64,000 bases of DNA from Candidatus Pelagisphaera phototrophica. GTDB lineage: Bacteria; Verrucomicrobiota; Verrucomicrobiia; Opitutales; Opitutaceae. The stretch spans positions 1,674,001 through 1,738,000 of the forward strand of contig NZ_CP076039.1 of the NCBI RefSeq assembly GCF_014529625.1. Reading direction: 5' to 3'. Below the pieces are notes generated by a model. The model did not search any database and was not told where the DNA came from. It was given only the letters and a program-made list of their open reading frames with translations. Below are positions 28,796 through 60,697 of this stretch, in pieces (the first letter of the stretch is position 1; the number at the start of each line of letters is the position of its first letter). A program made the translations under genes and the position numbers.

Positions 28796-28910
28796 GGCTA
28801 AGGAATAGTTATAAATGTTGAATAGGCAATGCAATTGGGGCCAGCTAAAAATAGCCTCTTGCCAAACACGATGGGTTTGTCGTACCCGAAAATACAGGGG
28901 TGGGAAGGTG

Positions 28911-28976
28911 TCGGGCGATCTCTGAGCGCCCATTATCGAACCTATTGGTTAGGCACATCGGAGATCACCCGATACC
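28911..28976. repeat. Inverted-repeat element, family A, copy 1
   Basis: Left arm TCGGGCGATCTCTGAGCGCC (28911-28930) and right arm around 28950-28972 (AGGCACATCGGAGATCACCC) are imperfect inverted copies separated by about 20 bases. The arms match those of copies at 54936, 59311 and 61018. Confidence 0.7.
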
Positions 28977-54935: not shown

Positions 54936-54998
54936 TGGGCGATCTCCTAGTGCCCACAGAACTAGAATTTAAATGGACGCTTGGGGATCGCCGCCACC
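54936..54998. repeat. Inverted-repeat element, family A, copy 2
   Basis: Left arm TGGGCGATCTCCTAGTGCCC (54936-54955) and right arm GGACGCTTGGGGATCGCCGC (around 54975-54994) are imperfect inverted copies separated by about 17 bases. The arms match those at 28911, 59311 and 61018. It lies between the sulfatase at 55019 and the isomerase gene. Confidence 0.7.
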
Positions 54999-55018: not shown

Positions 55019-56473
55019 TCACTCCCGTTCCCATTTTACTGTCCAAGGATCACGGGTTTCTTCCTGAAATTCCCGAAGCCTGGCCATGAGTTGATCGCGG
55101 GTTTTTCTGTATTTTAGATCGTCGGACAGATTGACCGTTTCGTGTGGATCAGATTCGAGATCGTAAAGTTCAAAGCGGGGACGATAGAGGAGGGCTTTGG
55201 GAGTGCGTCTTCCGTAGAACTCGAGTCCTTGCTTTTGCATGGATACCCAGGTGGGCGACTGGAGCAAGTCTTTGGCCAGGGGGAATTCGAGTCCATGGGC
55301 GATGTTGAAGATCAGTTTGTACTGACGATTCTTTACCACTCTCATTGGGTAGTACATGGTGACCTCATGGGCGGTGTGGGAAGCGAAGACTTCGTTCCTC
55401 CCTCTTAGGTTTCCACTTACCCCTTTGCGAAAGGATCGGCCGTGGGTCTTCATACTCGTTGGGTCGATTTCCGCGTAATCGAGTATAGTGGGGGCAAGGT
55501 CGACCCAAGAGACAAGAGCGTCCTGAGTGCGACTCTTCATTGTCTGACTCGGCTCTTTGACGATGCAGGGCAATCTCATTCCCGGTTCGTAGAGCGTGGT
55601 TTTGGCCCCTGCAAAAGCGACGCCATTGTCGGAGATGTAGATGACCAGGGTGTTGTCGTATTTCTCCGAACGTTTGAGAATATCGAGGAGATGGGCAATC
55701 CCCTGATCGAGTCGAGAAACGGACTGGTAGTACTCTGCCAGCTCCGCCCGACAAGCAGGTGTGTCGGGTAAAAAAGGTGGCACGACCACTTTTTCTGGAT
55801 CATATGTTACCGGGTTGATTCCCGGATAGCCTTGATCACGGTTTCCGAAACGATTGGGCTTAGGATAGGTGTCAAAGGTGGGTAGGCCGTCGGGTGTAAA
55901 TGCGTTGGATCGATGCGGGTCGTCGGTCGCGTAGAAAAGAAAGAAAGGCTCGGAATCATCACTTTCGATAATCGTGCGGGACTGTTCCGCCATTTCCCAG
56001 GGGCTTCGGCCGACGGTCGTAGGATCGTTGGCGGCGCCTGCGGATAAAACGAAATCGAATTGGTAGACCGATTCAGGGGCGACATGAAACTTTCCGATTC
56101 GGGCGGTGCGGTAGCCATTTTCTGATAAAGCGACCGGTAAGCTCTTGATGTCGTCGAAACTCTGATAGTGATGGAACGTGTGCTGCAAGCCGTATTGCCC
56201 GTTACGATGGTTGTGCAGGCCGCTGAGAATGACCGATCGACTGGGGCTGCAGCTTGCCGTGGTGCAATTCGCGTCGGTGAAGATTGTTCCGTCGGCTGCG
56301 AGGGAGTCCAAGGCCGGTGTCTGAATAATGGGATTTCCGTAGCATCCCAGGGCGTCGGTTCCATGGTCGTCAGAGACGATCAGAACAATATTGGGGTGCG
56401 CGGCAAGATTGCCCGTAGCTAGGGTTGTGGTGATCAGAAGAATAGAGAAAAGCCAATAGCTTTTTAGTTTCAT
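55019..56473 (-). CDS. Sulfatase, SGSH-like (heparan N-sulfatase type)
   Basis: A 484-residue secreted sulfatase with a signal peptide (MKLKSYWLFSILLITTTLAT), metal ligands in VSDDHGTDALGCYG (Asp35, Asp36) and active site C-S-P-S-R (Cys75 to Arg79). It follows human N-sulfoglucosamine sulfohydrolase unusually closely: SGLHNHRNGQYGLQHTFHHY, SFDDIKSLPVALSENGYRTA, IGKFHVAPESVYQFDF, FFLFYATDDPHR and VVPPFLPDTPACRAELAEYY all have counterparts. It is thus a good candidate for an N- or O-desulfating enzyme acting on amino sugars. No operon partner is evident. Confidence 0.94.
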   Translation of the reverse strand: MKLKSYWLFSILLITTTLATGNLAAHPNIVLIVSDDHGTDALGCYGNPIIQTPALDSLAADGTIFTDANCTTASCSPSRSVILSGLHNHRNGQYGLQHTFHHYQSFDDIKSLPVALSENGYRTARIGKFHVAPESVYQFDFVLSAGAANDPTTVGRSPWEMAEQSRTIIESDDSEPFFLFYATDDPHRSNAFTPDGLPTFDTYPKPNRFGNRDQGYPGINPVTYDPEKVVVPPFLPDTPACRAELAEYYQSVSRLDQGIAHLLDILKRSEKYDNTLVIYISDNGVAFAGAKTTLYEPGMRLPCIVKEPSQTMKSRTQDALVSWVDLAPTILDYAEIDPTSMKTHGRSFRKGVSGNLRGRNEVFASHTAHEVTMYYPMRVVKNRQYKLIFNIAHGLEFPLAKDLLQSPTWVSMQKQGLEFYGRRTPKALLYRPRFELYDLESDPHETVNLSDDLKYRKTRDQLMARLREFQEETRDPWTVKWERE

Positions 56474-56705: not shown

Positions 56706-59399
56706 CTATTTGGTCAAAAATGCTTCGCTTTGCGTGATCTGGATAACGAGATCGCGTAGTCCCGATCCGGAGTCGCTTAGTTGTTCCACGAGATTATTCA
56801 CCTCGGGCCGATCGGTGAATTCTATGGTTCGTCCCATTGAGTAAGCCAATAGCTTCTCGGTCAAGCAGTGCGCGAATTGCTCTTGCCGATTCGCGAGCAC
56901 CGACTTAAACGCCTTGATGTCTGAGAATTGGTCTCCGTTCGGAAGTTGCCCTGAAGCATCGATCAGTGGTCCTTTTGAATTGCCGCGGGGGTAGTGGTCA
57001 CGCCAGCCACCAATCGGGTCGAAATTCTCAAGCGCGAAGCCGAGGGGGTCGATTTTTCGGTGGCACTCGTAACACGTTTCCAACTCCCGATGTTTGTCTA
57101 GTTGATCACGAATGGTAGTGCTACCACGGATATCTGGCTCAAGGGGTTCCACATCAGGTGGAGGGGGTGCCGGTGGAGCTCCTAGGATATTATCCAAAAT
57201 CCAGATACCACGAATGATAGGGGAGGTGTCGATACCATTGGCGCTGGCGGTGAGGATGCTTGCTTGTCCCAGCAATCCGCCTCGTTGGGGAAAAGAGGCG
57301 AGGGAAACCTTTTGCATCGCGGGACCTGTGACTCCATTGATCCCGTAGAGCCGGGCGAGTCCTCCATCGACAAAAGTGAAATCGGAATCGAGAAAGGAGC
57401 TAATGGGGAGATTATTTTCCAGTATGTATCGGAAGAAAGTCTGCGTTTCCCGCTTCATGGAACCTTCCAGGCCATCCACGTAATAGGACATGAACTCCTT
57501 GTCGCTCGGTGGCATGGTGCCGATCTTATAAAGCTCTAGCCAGCGTGAGGTGAATTGCTCAGTGAAGGCCTGTGATCGTTTGTCATCGAGCATGCGAAGC
57601 ACTTGCGCTTTCAGCACGTCGGGTCGGGACAACGCTCCCGCTTTGGCGAGTTCTCTTAATGTCTGATCTGGTTGAGTTGACCAAAGAAAATAGCTAAGTC
57701 GCGAGGCGAGGGCGTAGTCATCAAGCCGACCTTCCGGCTCTTGCAGGTAGATAAAGTCGGGCGAACACAGGATCGCGCGAAAGCCGATCTTTAACGATTC
57801 GAACGCGGATTTTCCAGACTGGTGGGAAGACAGAACGAGTTCGTGCAACACGTCGATTTTCGCGTCATCTGCGGGTCGACGAAATGCGACATCGGCAAAT
57901 CGCTCCAGGATAGGCCGTGCATTTTCTATCGTCGGCTCTTTGTCGCCAAAAAGGGCGCGGTAGCTGGGGGTGGGCCAGTCCTCAAAATAGGGGCCTTCCA
58001 GTTCTATCTCGAAAACCCGGATTCGAGGACCTTCGTATCCACGATAGAAGGCGGCCCAGCCATCGCGTCGGTTAAACTTGTTCGAAGTTCCCTGGGTATC
58101 CAGAACGCGGCCGACGACGGTTGCGATTTTTTGGGCTTCCGCTTCGATGCGTCGCACTTCGGCTTCCTCGATCGGGTAGGGGTAGAGCCCGTCGCCTGGT
58201 ATGGTCCAGTTGTGGATGAATTCCTGGAAGTGATCTGGGTAGTTGCGGACCAGGGTCTTGCGAATCGGCTTAACTCGATTGGGCCCATTGGGAAAGGTCA
58301 GTCGTGGTTGAAATCCCTTATCGAGCCAGATGCGGGATTCGTACCATTCGGAAGATTCGTCGGCTATGATGAAATCGGCAACTTTGCGGTCTGAGGATGT
58401 TCTGGATTCCAGTTCACCGTACTCTCGTGAACCCGCTATCACATCAACGCGGAGGGGCTCGCTCTTGCGCGTTCCGACAATTCTTTCCGGATAAGGGTAC
58501 TCGCGATTGATGGCCTGAGCCTTGAATCTGAGCTTGTAGTATCCACTTTCTGGAACTCCTTGTTCTAGTTTTTCCAGCCAGAGAAAACCGTCTTGGTCGG
58601 TTGTGTTTTTCCGGATATGCTGAAATTCTCCTGCGACATCTTTTCCATCCCAGCGGTTGCCAGCGGTGTAAAAAGGGGCGGGGAATTGGTAGGATTGGAC
58701 TTCGGGCTCAGGGCCCTGACGCGTGGCCTGTTCGATGTACGACTCGGCCGCATCCAAATAGCCTTGCAGCAGAAAGTCGGAGGTGATGAGAGCGGATCCG
58801 ATGTTATTGAAATTCTCTTCCGTTTCATCTGGAGGAAAAGACTCCGTAGGGTCGATCAGTAGAGGCTGGAGATGGAGAAGGTCACGGACGGTACGGTTGT
58901 ATTCGTATCGATTGAGGCGGCGTAGAACGGTCTTACGATCCGAGCTCTTGTGGTGCTCATAGGCGATCGTTAATTCGTCTGTAATCCAGTTGATAACAGC
59001 CTGACGGTCGTCAGGGCTTGGCTGAGTCTCCTCCTCCGGAGGCATGTCTCCTAAATTCAGAAGGTCTGCGATATCCTGCCACAGTATTAGTGCGTCTTTA
59101 TCGAGAAAGTCGCTCTTGAGATTATCATAGCGCCGATCGCCTTTCTGCTTCTCCGGACCGTGACATTGGATGCAGTACTCTTCGAGGAAGGGCGCGACCG
59201 TGTCGTGGTAGGTATCCGCGTACGTTCTCAGAGTATTGAGAAACAACAAACTCAGAACGACCAGAATCGAGCAATTTGTTTTGAGCCGACTAGTATGTAA
59301 TTTGACAAAGGGTACCGGACGATCTCCGAGGGCCCACAAACTAAGGGATAAACTGGGCACTCGGAGATCGTTCGCTACCTTCGACTTTTCGTGGCTCAT
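56706..59399 (-). CDS. DUF1587/DUF1592/DUF1588/DUF1585 haem-binding protein with repeat-derived N-terminus
   Basis: An 897-residue member of the same family as 1965-4448. The haem motif C-I-Q-C-H (Cys76 to His80), GPEKQKGDRRYD, RRLNRYEYNRTVRDLLHLQP, ASRLSYFLWSTQPD and CYECHRKIDPLGFALENFD are all present. The ATG at 59399 overlaps the DUF1552 stop (ATGA). Residues about 8-30 are encoded by an inverted-repeat element (59311-59378) that is in frame, and the hydrophobic signal (about 43-61) comes only after it. No other ATG exists before the signal, so the true start may be a non-ATG codon after the repeat or the extension may really be made. Compared with the copy at 1965, the rest is normal. 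Confidence 0.92.
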   Translation of the reverse strand: MSHEKSKVANDLRVPSLSLSLWALGDRPVPFVKLHTSRLKTNCSILVVLSLLFLNTLRTYADTYHDTVAPFLEEYCIQCHGPEKQKGDRRYDNLKSDFLDKDALILWQDIADLLNLGDMPPEEETQPSPDDRQAVINWITDELTIAYEHHKSSDRKTVLRRLNRYEYNRTVRDLLHLQPLLIDPTESFPPDETEENFNNIGSALITSDFLLQGYLDAAESYIEQATRQGPEPEVQSYQFPAPFYTAGNRWDGKDVAGEFQHIRKNTTDQDGFLWLEKLEQGVPESGYYKLRFKAQAINREYPYPERIVGTRKSEPLRVDVIAGSREYGELESRTSSDRKVADFIIADESSEWYESRIWLDKGFQPRLTFPNGPNRVKPIRKTLVRNYPDHFQEFIHNWTIPGDGLYPYPIEEAEVRRIEAEAQKIATVVGRVLDTQGTSNKFNRRDGWAAFYRGYEGPRIRVFEIELEGPYFEDWPTPSYRALFGDKEPTIENARPILERFADVAFRRPADDAKIDVLHELVLSSHQSGKSAFESLKIGFRAILCSPDFIYLQEPEGRLDDYALASRLSYFLWSTQPDQTLRELAKAGALSRPDVLKAQVLRMLDDKRSQAFTEQFTSRWLELYKIGTMPPSDKEFMSYYVDGLEGSMKRETQTFFRYILENNLPISSFLDSDFTFVDGGLARLYGINGVTGPAMQKVSLASFPQRGGLLGQASILTASANGIDTSPIIRGIWILDNILGAPPAPPPPDVEPLEPDIRGSTTIRDQLDKHRELETCYECHRKIDPLGFALENFDPIGGWRDHYPRGNSKGPLIDASGQLPNGDQFSDIKAFKSVLANRQEQFAHCLTEKLLAYSMGRTIEFTDRPEVNNLVEQLSDSGSGLRDLVIQITQSEAFLTK
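59311..59378. repeat. Inverted-repeat element, family A, copy 3, inside a coding start
   Basis: Arms GGTACCGGACGATCTCCGAG (from 59311, extending to 59336) and its near-perfect inverse (59353-59378, ending AGATCGTTCGCTACC) differ at only 3 of 26 positions and are separated by 16 bases. It lies between the ATGA start of the DUF1592 gene and its signal peptide and keeps the frame open. Confidence 0.85.
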
Positions 59400-60697
59400 G
59401 CCGTTTCCAGGCCGGTCAAAGTGCCAGAACCCTTATTGAATTGGTCGATTTCCAGTCCGAAACGTTGCAGTATGGATCCATACAAGTTGCAGAGTGGAAC
59501 CCGTTTGTGGTTTTCAGTTGGATACACTTTGTGTTCCCCATGTTTGAATCCGCCACCTGCGAGAAGGAGGGGCAGGTTTTTGTTCGAGTGTGAGCTGCCG
59601 TTGCCCATGCCGCTTCCTATCAGCACCATGGTGCGATCGAGGAGTGACTGCCCGTCGGGCTCTTTGATTGTCTTAAGCTTGTCCAGAAATCGCCCCATTT
59701 GCTCTACTTGGAATTTCTCGATGACAAAGAGTCCTTGCCGCAGCTTTTCGGCTTTTCCGTGATGAGAGAATCCATGGTAGCTGCCAACGAGACCGAGGTC
59801 GGCGGTATTCACATTTCCGGGAACGCCGAGGGTCGCTACTCGCGTCGAATCCGTTTCCAGGGCGAGAGCCAGCAGATCGTAGAAGGCGGGAACGGTATAG
59901 GTGAGATCGCCCTCTCCCGGCTCTCCGATGTCGACTTTGGGTTTTGGCTTGTGCAGCCATTCGCGTGACATGCCCAGTTTGCGTTCCAACTCGCGAACGG
60001 AGTTCAGGTATTCGTCGAGTTTCTCCTGGTCTGCTTTGCCCAGTTGCCGACTTAACATCTTGGCTTGGCTATTTACGACATCGAGGATGCTTTCGTTAAT
60101 ATCGTAGGCTGACTTGTGCTTAGCGAGGAGTCGGGGATCATCCTGCACAAAGAGTGCTTTGAAGAGGTCGCGCGCCCTTGTGACCGGGGGCACGTTGACG
60201 CCATTTCGAGTCCAGGAAAGTTTGCATTTCAAGTCGCCGTCACCGTCACCGGTGGACATCACGAGCGAAGAATAGCGTGTGCGGGTCCCAACGAATTCGG
60301 CTGCCCGTTGATCCACGGATATGTTTCCCTCTGGCCAGTCAGATGCGTCCTGGTCCTTAATGCCGCTGAGAAATGCGTGCACGGCGCTGTGTCCGCCGGA
60401 AATATCGTGATCGAGGTTTGAGAATATCGTGAAGTCCTTGCGATGGCGCCCGATTGGGCGCAGGAGGTCGGAAAGTTCGTAATTAGCCCCTTCGCCTTTC
60501 GGAAAAAAGCTGTCCGGCATGAGCCCGAGAGGATTTCCTATGCAAACCATTCGCATCGGAGATCCAGTACCGCTAGTTTTGGCAGCCGCTCCAACCGCTT
60601 TGGCGGGGAGGGGCCCCATGTTCTCAAAGAAGGGGAGGGCCATGGCGACACCGGTGCCTTTCAAAAAAGTGCGACGATCCATTTTTCGTATTTTCAT
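59396..60697 (-). CDS. DUF1552 protein, Tat-exported
   Basis: A 433-residue protein with a twin-arginine signal (RRTFLKGTGVAMALPFFENM). Family blocks are FFPKGEGANYELSDLL, SNLDHDISGGHSAVHAFLSG, WTRNGVNVPPVTRARDLFKA, MSREWLHKPKPKVD and IGSGMGNGSSHSNKNLPLLL. It is a paralogue of the protein at 4488, with the same placement upstream of a DUF1592-type gene, here with a 4-base ATGA overlap that implies translational coupling. The function is unknown; co-occurrence with a haem protein suggests a periplasmic complex. Confidence 0.93.
   Translation of the reverse strand: MKIRKMDRRTFLKGTGVAMALPFFENMGPLPAKAVGAAAKTSGTGSPMRMVCIGNPLGLMPDSFFPKGEGANYELSDLLRPIGRHRKDFTIFSNLDHDISGGHSAVHAFLSGIKDQDASDWPEGNISVDQRAAEFVGTRTRYSSLVMSTGDGDGDLKCKLSWTRNGVNVPPVTRARDLFKALFVQDDPRLLAKHKSAYDINESILDVVNSQAKMLSRQLGKADQEKLDEYLNSVRELERKLGMSREWLHKPKPKVDIGEPGEGDLTYTVPAFYDLLALALETDSTRVATLGVPGNVNTADLGLVGSYHGFSHHGKAEKLRQGLFVIEKFQVEQMGRFLDKLKTIKEPDGQSLLDRTMVLIGSGMGNGSSHSNKNLPLLLAGGGFKHGEHKVYPTENHKRVPLCNLYGSILQRFGLEIDQFNKGSGTLTGLETA

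What the first reader, a model, noticed from the sequence alone, without database searches (positions are those of the whole stretch)
59311..59399. Inverted repeat captured in frame at the start of a DUF1592 gene
The element lies between the ATGA-overlapping start (59399) and the signal peptide and adds about 23 codons (around residues 8-30) without a stop. Either a mobile element has donated a new N-terminal extension to an exported protein, or translation starts at a non-ATG codon past it. The other DUF1592 copies lack this extension.
Basis: seen in the sequence. Interest (0 to 1): 0.65.

Follow-up and report, generated by a model that had tools for sequence, protein, structure and literature searches.

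The report
Palindromic repeat inside a signal peptide
A small mobile DNA repeat (a pair of REP hairpins) has landed in frame just after the start codon of a gene for an exported protein, so 23 repeat-derived codons are read as part of the disposable export signal; this is a known kind of event, made unusually clear by relatives with and without the repeat.

Summary
A 69-bp inverted repeat (59311-59379, 26-nt arms) lies in frame between codons 7 and 30 of a DUF1592-type gene (56706-59399, minus strand) whose ATG overlaps the upstream DUF1552 stop (ATGA).

It is one of about 30 genomic copies of a GTAG-tagged REP pair (REP dimer/REPIN). Each arm is GTAGC plus a short hairpin, supported by compensatory changes. 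Most copies are intergenic.

Orthologues at 93-94% identity carry it in the same place and frame, one with a second palindrome nested inside. Orthologues at 66-77% lack it; three of these keep the ATGA start and run straight into a signal peptide. A 78% orthologue, sister to an element-free one, carries another subtype at almost the same site in another frame, so insertion probably happened twice.

In this genome no usual start codon lies between element and hydrophobic core. The element evolves at the synonymous rate without codon-position bias, so it looks tolerated, not selected, probably because it only lengthens a signal-peptide n-region that is cut off at export.

In-frame REP dimers in Opitutus proteins were reported before (PMC3733652). 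This is a well-documented new member of a known kind. Protein-level proof is missing.

The parts
59311..59379 (-). REP dimer (two inverted GTAG-tagged units), 69 bp, in frame as codons 7-30 of the DUF1592 gene
59354..59379 (-). First REP unit as transcribed: GGTAGCGAACGATCTCCGAGTGCCCA, GTAG tag intact
59311..59336 (+). Second REP unit, inverted: GGTACCGGACGATCTCCGAGGGCCCA, tag decayed to GTAC
59337..59353 (.). 17-nt spacer between the units; holds the conserved in-frame TTG (59339-59337), the best alternative start
59397..59399 (-). ATG start of the DUF1592 gene, overlapping the DUF1552 stop as ATGA (59399-59396)
   Evidence: same ATGA in G006, G003, G010, G001, CALJGU and CALGUT
59238..59270 (-). 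Hydrophobic core of the signal peptide, SILVVLSLLFL, residues 44-54
   Evidence: Kyte-Doolittle mean 3.01
59217..59219 (-). A61, likely last residue of the signal peptide (RTYA|DTYH)
   Evidence: inference from sequence; no predictor was run
56706..59399 (-). DUF1592/1588/1585/1587/1595 gene with N-terminal Planctomycete cytochrome C domain, 897 aa
59396..60697 (-). Upstream overlapping DUF1552 gene, 433 aa

Best explanation
The repeat is a GTAG-tagged REP dimer (REPIN), a non-autonomous mobile palindrome. It inserted into the first codons of the DUF1592 gene in the common ancestor of this genome and at least two close relatives (shown by comparison). The 69-bp length keeps the frame and two of the element's three frames are mostly stop-free, so the ribosome starts at the original coupled ATG (inferred) and reads through it. 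The 23 extra residues lengthen the n-region of a Sec-type signal peptide from about 20 to 43 residues. They stay on the cytoplasmic side during export and leave with the cleaved signal peptide (inferred), so the mature protein is unchanged and the insertion is tolerated. It would have been moved by a REP-associated tyrosine transposase (TnpA-REP/RAYT) that this genome does not carry now (inferred).
For: Multi-copy family: 19 BLAST hits and about 30 covariance-model copies in the own genome, present in all six genus genomes searched. REP anatomy: GTAG at both outer ends; each arm is a 5-bp hairpin with compensatory change at pair 9/23 (85 G-C, 46 C-G of 167 arms), and the two subtypes fold identically. 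Orthologues: G006 (94%) same place, same 69 bp; G003 (93%) perfect palindrome plus a nested 39-bp insert, still in frame. G001, CALJGU and CALGUT (73-77%) begin at the same ATGA and go straight into a signal peptide; the three 66% orthologues also lack the element. No ATG, GTG or TTG between element and hydrophobic core in G000 and G003. Drift: variable sites 5/6/5 by codon position in the element against 50/28/222 in the mature part (Fisher p = 0.0006); element rate 24% against 27% at third positions and 5% at positions 1+2. The same family lies in frame in other supported genes: a PhoD-like phosphatase, a sulfatase, and an AcrB-type pump whose orthologues lack it.
Against: No peptide or ribosome-profiling data. 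The conserved TTG inside the element could start translation. The paper describing such repeats warns that many N-terminal REPs may be untranslated (PMC3733652). No RAYT gene in this genome or G006, and none of 20 RAYT stretches of relatives has this family directly beside it. Frame survival is weak evidence for translation: 16 random substitutions leave the frame open 64% of the time. Signal peptide cleavage was not computed with a predictor.
Confidence: 0.82

Rival explanations
1. Translation starts at the TTG inside the element's spacer (59339-59337). The first REP unit is then 5' untranslated sequence, and only about 10 repeat-derived residues (WALGDRPVP) are added.
For: TTG is in frame and conserved in G000, G006 and G003. 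It would give a signal peptide of ordinary length. PMC3733652 notes that many N-terminal REPs may be untranslated.
Against: The ATGA start is conserved in element-free relatives, no purine-rich ribosome site is seen before the TTG, and the TTG sits at the edge of a strong hairpin.
Confidence: 0.13
2. The extension has been put to use: the long n-region or its RNA hairpin now tunes translation or export of the protein.
For: Kept in frame in three species, probably gained twice in this gene. A hairpin 20 nt after the start could affect initiation. In the PhoD case the element evolves more slowly than synonymous sites.
Against: In DUF1592 the element drifts at the synonymous rate without codon-position bias, and the hairpin has weakened from -60 (G003 without its insert) to -40 and -28 kcal/mol in G000 and G006.
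Confidence: 0.1
3. One old insertion was shared by G010 and the G000 group and lost in G001 and in CALJGU/CALGUT, rather than two insertions.
For: The sites differ by one nucleotide (20 against 21 nt from the ATG).
Against: G010 groups with element-free G001 (100/99). Its element is of the other subtype, the common one in its own genome, and is read in a different frame. At least two clean losses would be needed.
Confidence: 0.2
4. It is a MITE of a DDE insertion sequence rather than a REP dimer.
For: Palindromic with fixed ends; 2-bp repeats at the junctions are in excess (19 of 67 against 8.3 expected).
Against: Each arm is a GTAG-tagged hairpin with compensatory change. No duplication of 3 bp or more.
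Confidence: 0.1

Closest known systems
GTAG-family REPs in head-to-head dimers, including intragenic ones in Opitutus terrae (PMC3733652, BMC Genomics 2013)
   Same: GTAG tag at the outer ends, short hairpin per unit, inverted pair, multi-copy, mostly intergenic, some in frame and encoding 20-30 residues, found in the same lineage (Opitutus)
   Different: Spacer about 17 nt against the 1-2 bp given there for the O. terrae GTAG-17 dimers; unit sequence not compared with their family list (figure not held); here the host is a signal peptide, with element-free orthologues as controls
REPINs (PMC3116915)
   Same: Two inverted REPs with a spacer that spread as one unit (from the title and my own knowledge; found, not opened)
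   Different: No cognate RAYT in this genome, about 30 copies, many decayed
Rickettsia palindromic elements (RPE)
   Same: Works like them: palindromes captured in frame in real proteins, some at the N-terminus and expressed (as cited in PMC3733652)
   Different: RPE-4 and RPE-6 belong to the CGTC-tagged kind, here GTAG; different phylum; sequence relation not tested
Bacterial MITEs
   Same: Short, palindromic, non-autonomous, multi-copy
   Different: No target duplication beyond a 2-bp excess; GTAG hairpins point to REP; no parent IS was sought

Membership tests
GTAG REP | Unpaired GTAG next to one end of a short palindrome | tested here: met
   G, T, A, G conserved in 154-158 of 167 arms at each position; the window copy has GTAG on one arm and GTAC on the other
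GTAG REP | Short stem (5-13 bp) with a 2-20 nt loop in each unit | tested here: met
   5-bp stem 7-11/21-25, 83-93% paired per pair, compensatory G-C/C-G at 9/23; both subtypes fold alike
GTAG REP | Multi-copy and mainly intergenic | tested here: met
   About 30 copies in G000; 73 of 89 copies in six genomes lie outside any ORF of 200 aa or more
REP dimer / REPIN | Two inverted units with GTAG outside, able to form one large hairpin | tested here: met
REP dimer / REPIN | Association with a REP-associated tyrosine transposase (Y1_Tnp, PF01797) | tested here: inconclusive
   None in G000 or G006; present in 8 of 10 genus relatives, but none of 20 RAYT stretches read has this family directly beside it. 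[quoted passage not shown]
Rickettsia palindromic element | In-frame insertion in expressed protein genes | tested here: inconclusive
   In frame in four gene families; expression not testable here
Rickettsia palindromic element | CGTC tag (RPE-4, RPE-6) | tested here: not met
   GTAG tag; RPE tag as given in PMC3733652
MITE of a DDE insertion sequence | Constant target-site duplication | tested here: not met
   No excess at 3 bp or more; 2-bp matches 19 of 67 against 8.3 expected, of mixed sequence

The most novel reading that the evidence does not exclude
In this Opitutales genus the signal-peptide n-region just past a start codon that overlaps or lies close to the upstream gene is a recurrent landing site for REP dimers: DUF1592 probably twice, a PhoD-like phosphatase and a sulfatase. 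Such extensions persist across species, and in the PhoD case the element is more conserved than synonymous sites, so some may have been put to use.
Probability: 0.25. Interest if true: 0.55.

Novelty: new member of a known kind. Interest (0 to 1): 0.38.

Why it matters
It is a clean natural experiment on how mobile palindromes enter proteins: the same gene and start, with and without the element, and probably two separate captures at one site. It suggests a simple rule: where genes of an operon overlap and leave no spacer, the disposable n-region of a signal peptide is one of the few places where an in-frame insert does no harm. It also warns that gene callers and orthologue alignments will take repeat-derived codons for conserved protein.

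Tried and rejected
Chance palindrome: rejected. RAYT in the own genome: none. RAYT loci of relatives as the source of this family: 20 stretches read, only one copy about 2 kb from a broken RAYT in G001 and one weak unit in G004; not decisive. Rfam families around the element: none. MITE with target duplication: only a 2-bp excess. Selection on the element peptide in this gene: no sign. Long open frames across other copies (L092, L095, L096, L097, L138, L160, L194, L197) were not counted as captures, because a better start lies after the element or the ORF has no support.

Full report
What is there. On the minus strand the DUF1592-type gene (56706-59399, 897 aa) begins with an ATG that overlaps the stop of the DUF1552 gene (59396-60697) as ATGA. 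After twenty nucleotides of the gene comes a 69-bp inverted repeat, 59379 down to 59311, with 26-nt arms that are 88% complementary and a 17-nt spacer. It is read in frame as the end of codon 7 to codon 30: MSHEKS-KVANDLRVPSLSLSLWALGDRPVP-FVKLHTSRLKTNC-SILVVLSLLFL-NTLRTYA|DTYHDTV. Its fold is far beyond shuffles (z = -8.65).

What it is. BLAST against the own 4.09-Mb genome gives 19 hits and a covariance model about 30 distinct copies, with consensus GGTAGCGGGCGATCTCCGAGCGCCCA-N(about 17)-TGGGCGCTCGGAGATCGCCCGCTACC. All six further genomes of the genus that were searched carry it. Each arm is itself a small hairpin behind a GTAG tag (GTAGC-GGGCG-ATCTCCGAG-CGCCC). A second subtype (GTAGC-GGCCG-ATCTCCGAG-CGGCC) keeps the hairpin by a compensatory change: pair 9/23 is G-C in 85 and C-G in 46 of 167 arms. 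That is the anatomy of GTAG REPs in head-to-head dimers (PMC3733652), also called REPINs. Of 89 copies surveyed in six genomes, 73 lie outside any ORF of 200 aa or more, 9 overlap one partly and 7 lie inside one.

Mobility. The tyrosine transposase family PF01797 is absent from this genome and from G006 but present in 8 of 10 relatives. Some of those genes have other GTAG hairpins beside them, but none is directly flanked by this family. The family may be an orphan here; its mover is inferred, not shown. The junctions show a modest excess of 2-bp repeats (19 of 67, expected 8.3, no shuffle of 1000 as many), which I would not expect from single-strand REP transposition and leave open.

Relatives. 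Orthologues: G006 (UBA5694, 94%) has the element in the same place, 69 bp, decayed. G003 (93%) has a perfect palindrome interrupted by a 39-bp second palindrome, itself repeated in that genome (4 matches with up to 3 mismatches), still in frame. G005 (92%) is cut off by its contig end. G001 (77%), CALJGU (75%) and CALGUT (73%) have no element: the same ATGA start is followed at once by a signal peptide (MRIRSKLIFALF..., MKHIRNRFVTTLVLL..., MKLFYAAILVCL...). G002, G004 and G007 (66%) lack it too. G010 (78%) carries an element of the other subtype: its DUF1552 contig ends and its DUF1592 contig begins inside the element, with a 22-nt exact overlap. Read across, they give MRSTKSQ-GSGRSPSGQNLFNKYGRSEIGRY-LIVILGLVF, in frame, but in a different frame of the element. 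Trees of protein and DNA place G010 with element-free G001 (100/99) and the G000 group apart. Two insertions at nearly the same codon are the simpler reading; joining the two G010 contigs is my inference.

Does translation pass through it? Between the element and the hydrophobic core there is no ATG, GTG or TTG in G000 or G003; G006 has only a TTG at the core's edge. The coupled ATG is the evident start in the element-free relatives that keep it. A TTG inside the spacer (59339-59337), conserved in all three, remains the best alternative; it too would give an element-derived N-terminus. In element-free orthologues the n-region is 6-11 residues long; here it is 43, in G003 56 and in G010 30, with a clear hydrophobic core in all.

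Is it kept for a reason? Among G000, G006 and G003, variable sites in the element fall 5/6/5 over the codon positions, against 50/28/222 in the mature protein (Fisher p = 0.0006), at about the rate of third positions (24% and 27%). The sequence is drifting; only openness and frame survive, which 16 random changes would allow 64% of the time anyway. About a quarter (126 of 534) of copy-strand-frame combinations are both stop-free and a multiple of three long, so an in-frame landing is not rare. The simplest reading is that the extension is neutral because it ends up in the cleaved signal peptide (inference).

Other captures. The same family is in frame in a PhoD-like phosphatase of G002 and G007, 26 nt after the ATG's first base, the start overlapping the upstream gene in G002. 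It is in frame in a sulfatase of this genome directly after its ATG; the G003 orthologue lacks it. And it is in frame in the loop between the halves of an AcrB-type pump in G001, where the G010 and G003 orthologues have only 2 codons and 1 codon between the aligned halves, against 42 residues in G001. The pump shows that in-frame capture by this family does not hang on start-codon calls.

Known or new. Intragenic GTAG REP dimers encoding 20-30 residues, with the highest number in Opitutus terrae, were described in 2013, with the caution that many N-terminal ones may be untranslated (PMC3733652). The present case belongs to that kind. Its added value is the set of orthologues with and without the element, the probable double hit, the nested insert and the signal-peptide setting.

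Noticed in passing
window 28907-28976 and 54938-54992: Two further copies of the same REP dimer in the window. The first overlaps only the predicted start of a 298-aa ORF; the second lies just past the 3' end of the sulfatase gene 55019-56473.
   Followed up: partly
L193 1506-3200 (G002) and L210 (G007): PhoD-like phosphatase with the same element in its signal peptide in both genomes; the element differs at 9 of 66 sites while third positions of the mature part differ at 121 of 254, so it changes more slowly than synonymous sites.
   Followed up: partly
L184 50-3100 (G001): AcrB-type RND pump with the element in frame in the loop between its two halves; orthologues in G010 and G003 lack it.
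   Followed up: yes
L100 863-1684 (own genome 3279048-3279114): Sulfatase whose ATG directly abuts the element; its open frame is much shorter (276 codons) than in relatives (507-548), so the gene may be broken.
   Followed up: partly
L016 / L035 (G003): A second, unrelated 39-bp palindrome nested in frame inside the element; it is itself repeated in that genome.
   Followed up: partly
L106 (own genome 3011889-3011960) and L169 (G003): Element just upstream of a gluconolactonase-like gene that has no ATG near its signal peptide; the likely start is a TTG soon after the element.
   Followed up: no
Junctions of 67 copies in six genomes: Excess of 2-bp direct repeats exactly at the element ends (19 against 8.3 expected), mostly TT or AA; not explained.
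   Followed up: partly
L135, L137, L139 (own genome): Copies whose spacer holds another palindromic stretch (ACAGGC...GCCTGT type), i.e. repeats nested in repeats.
   Followed up: no
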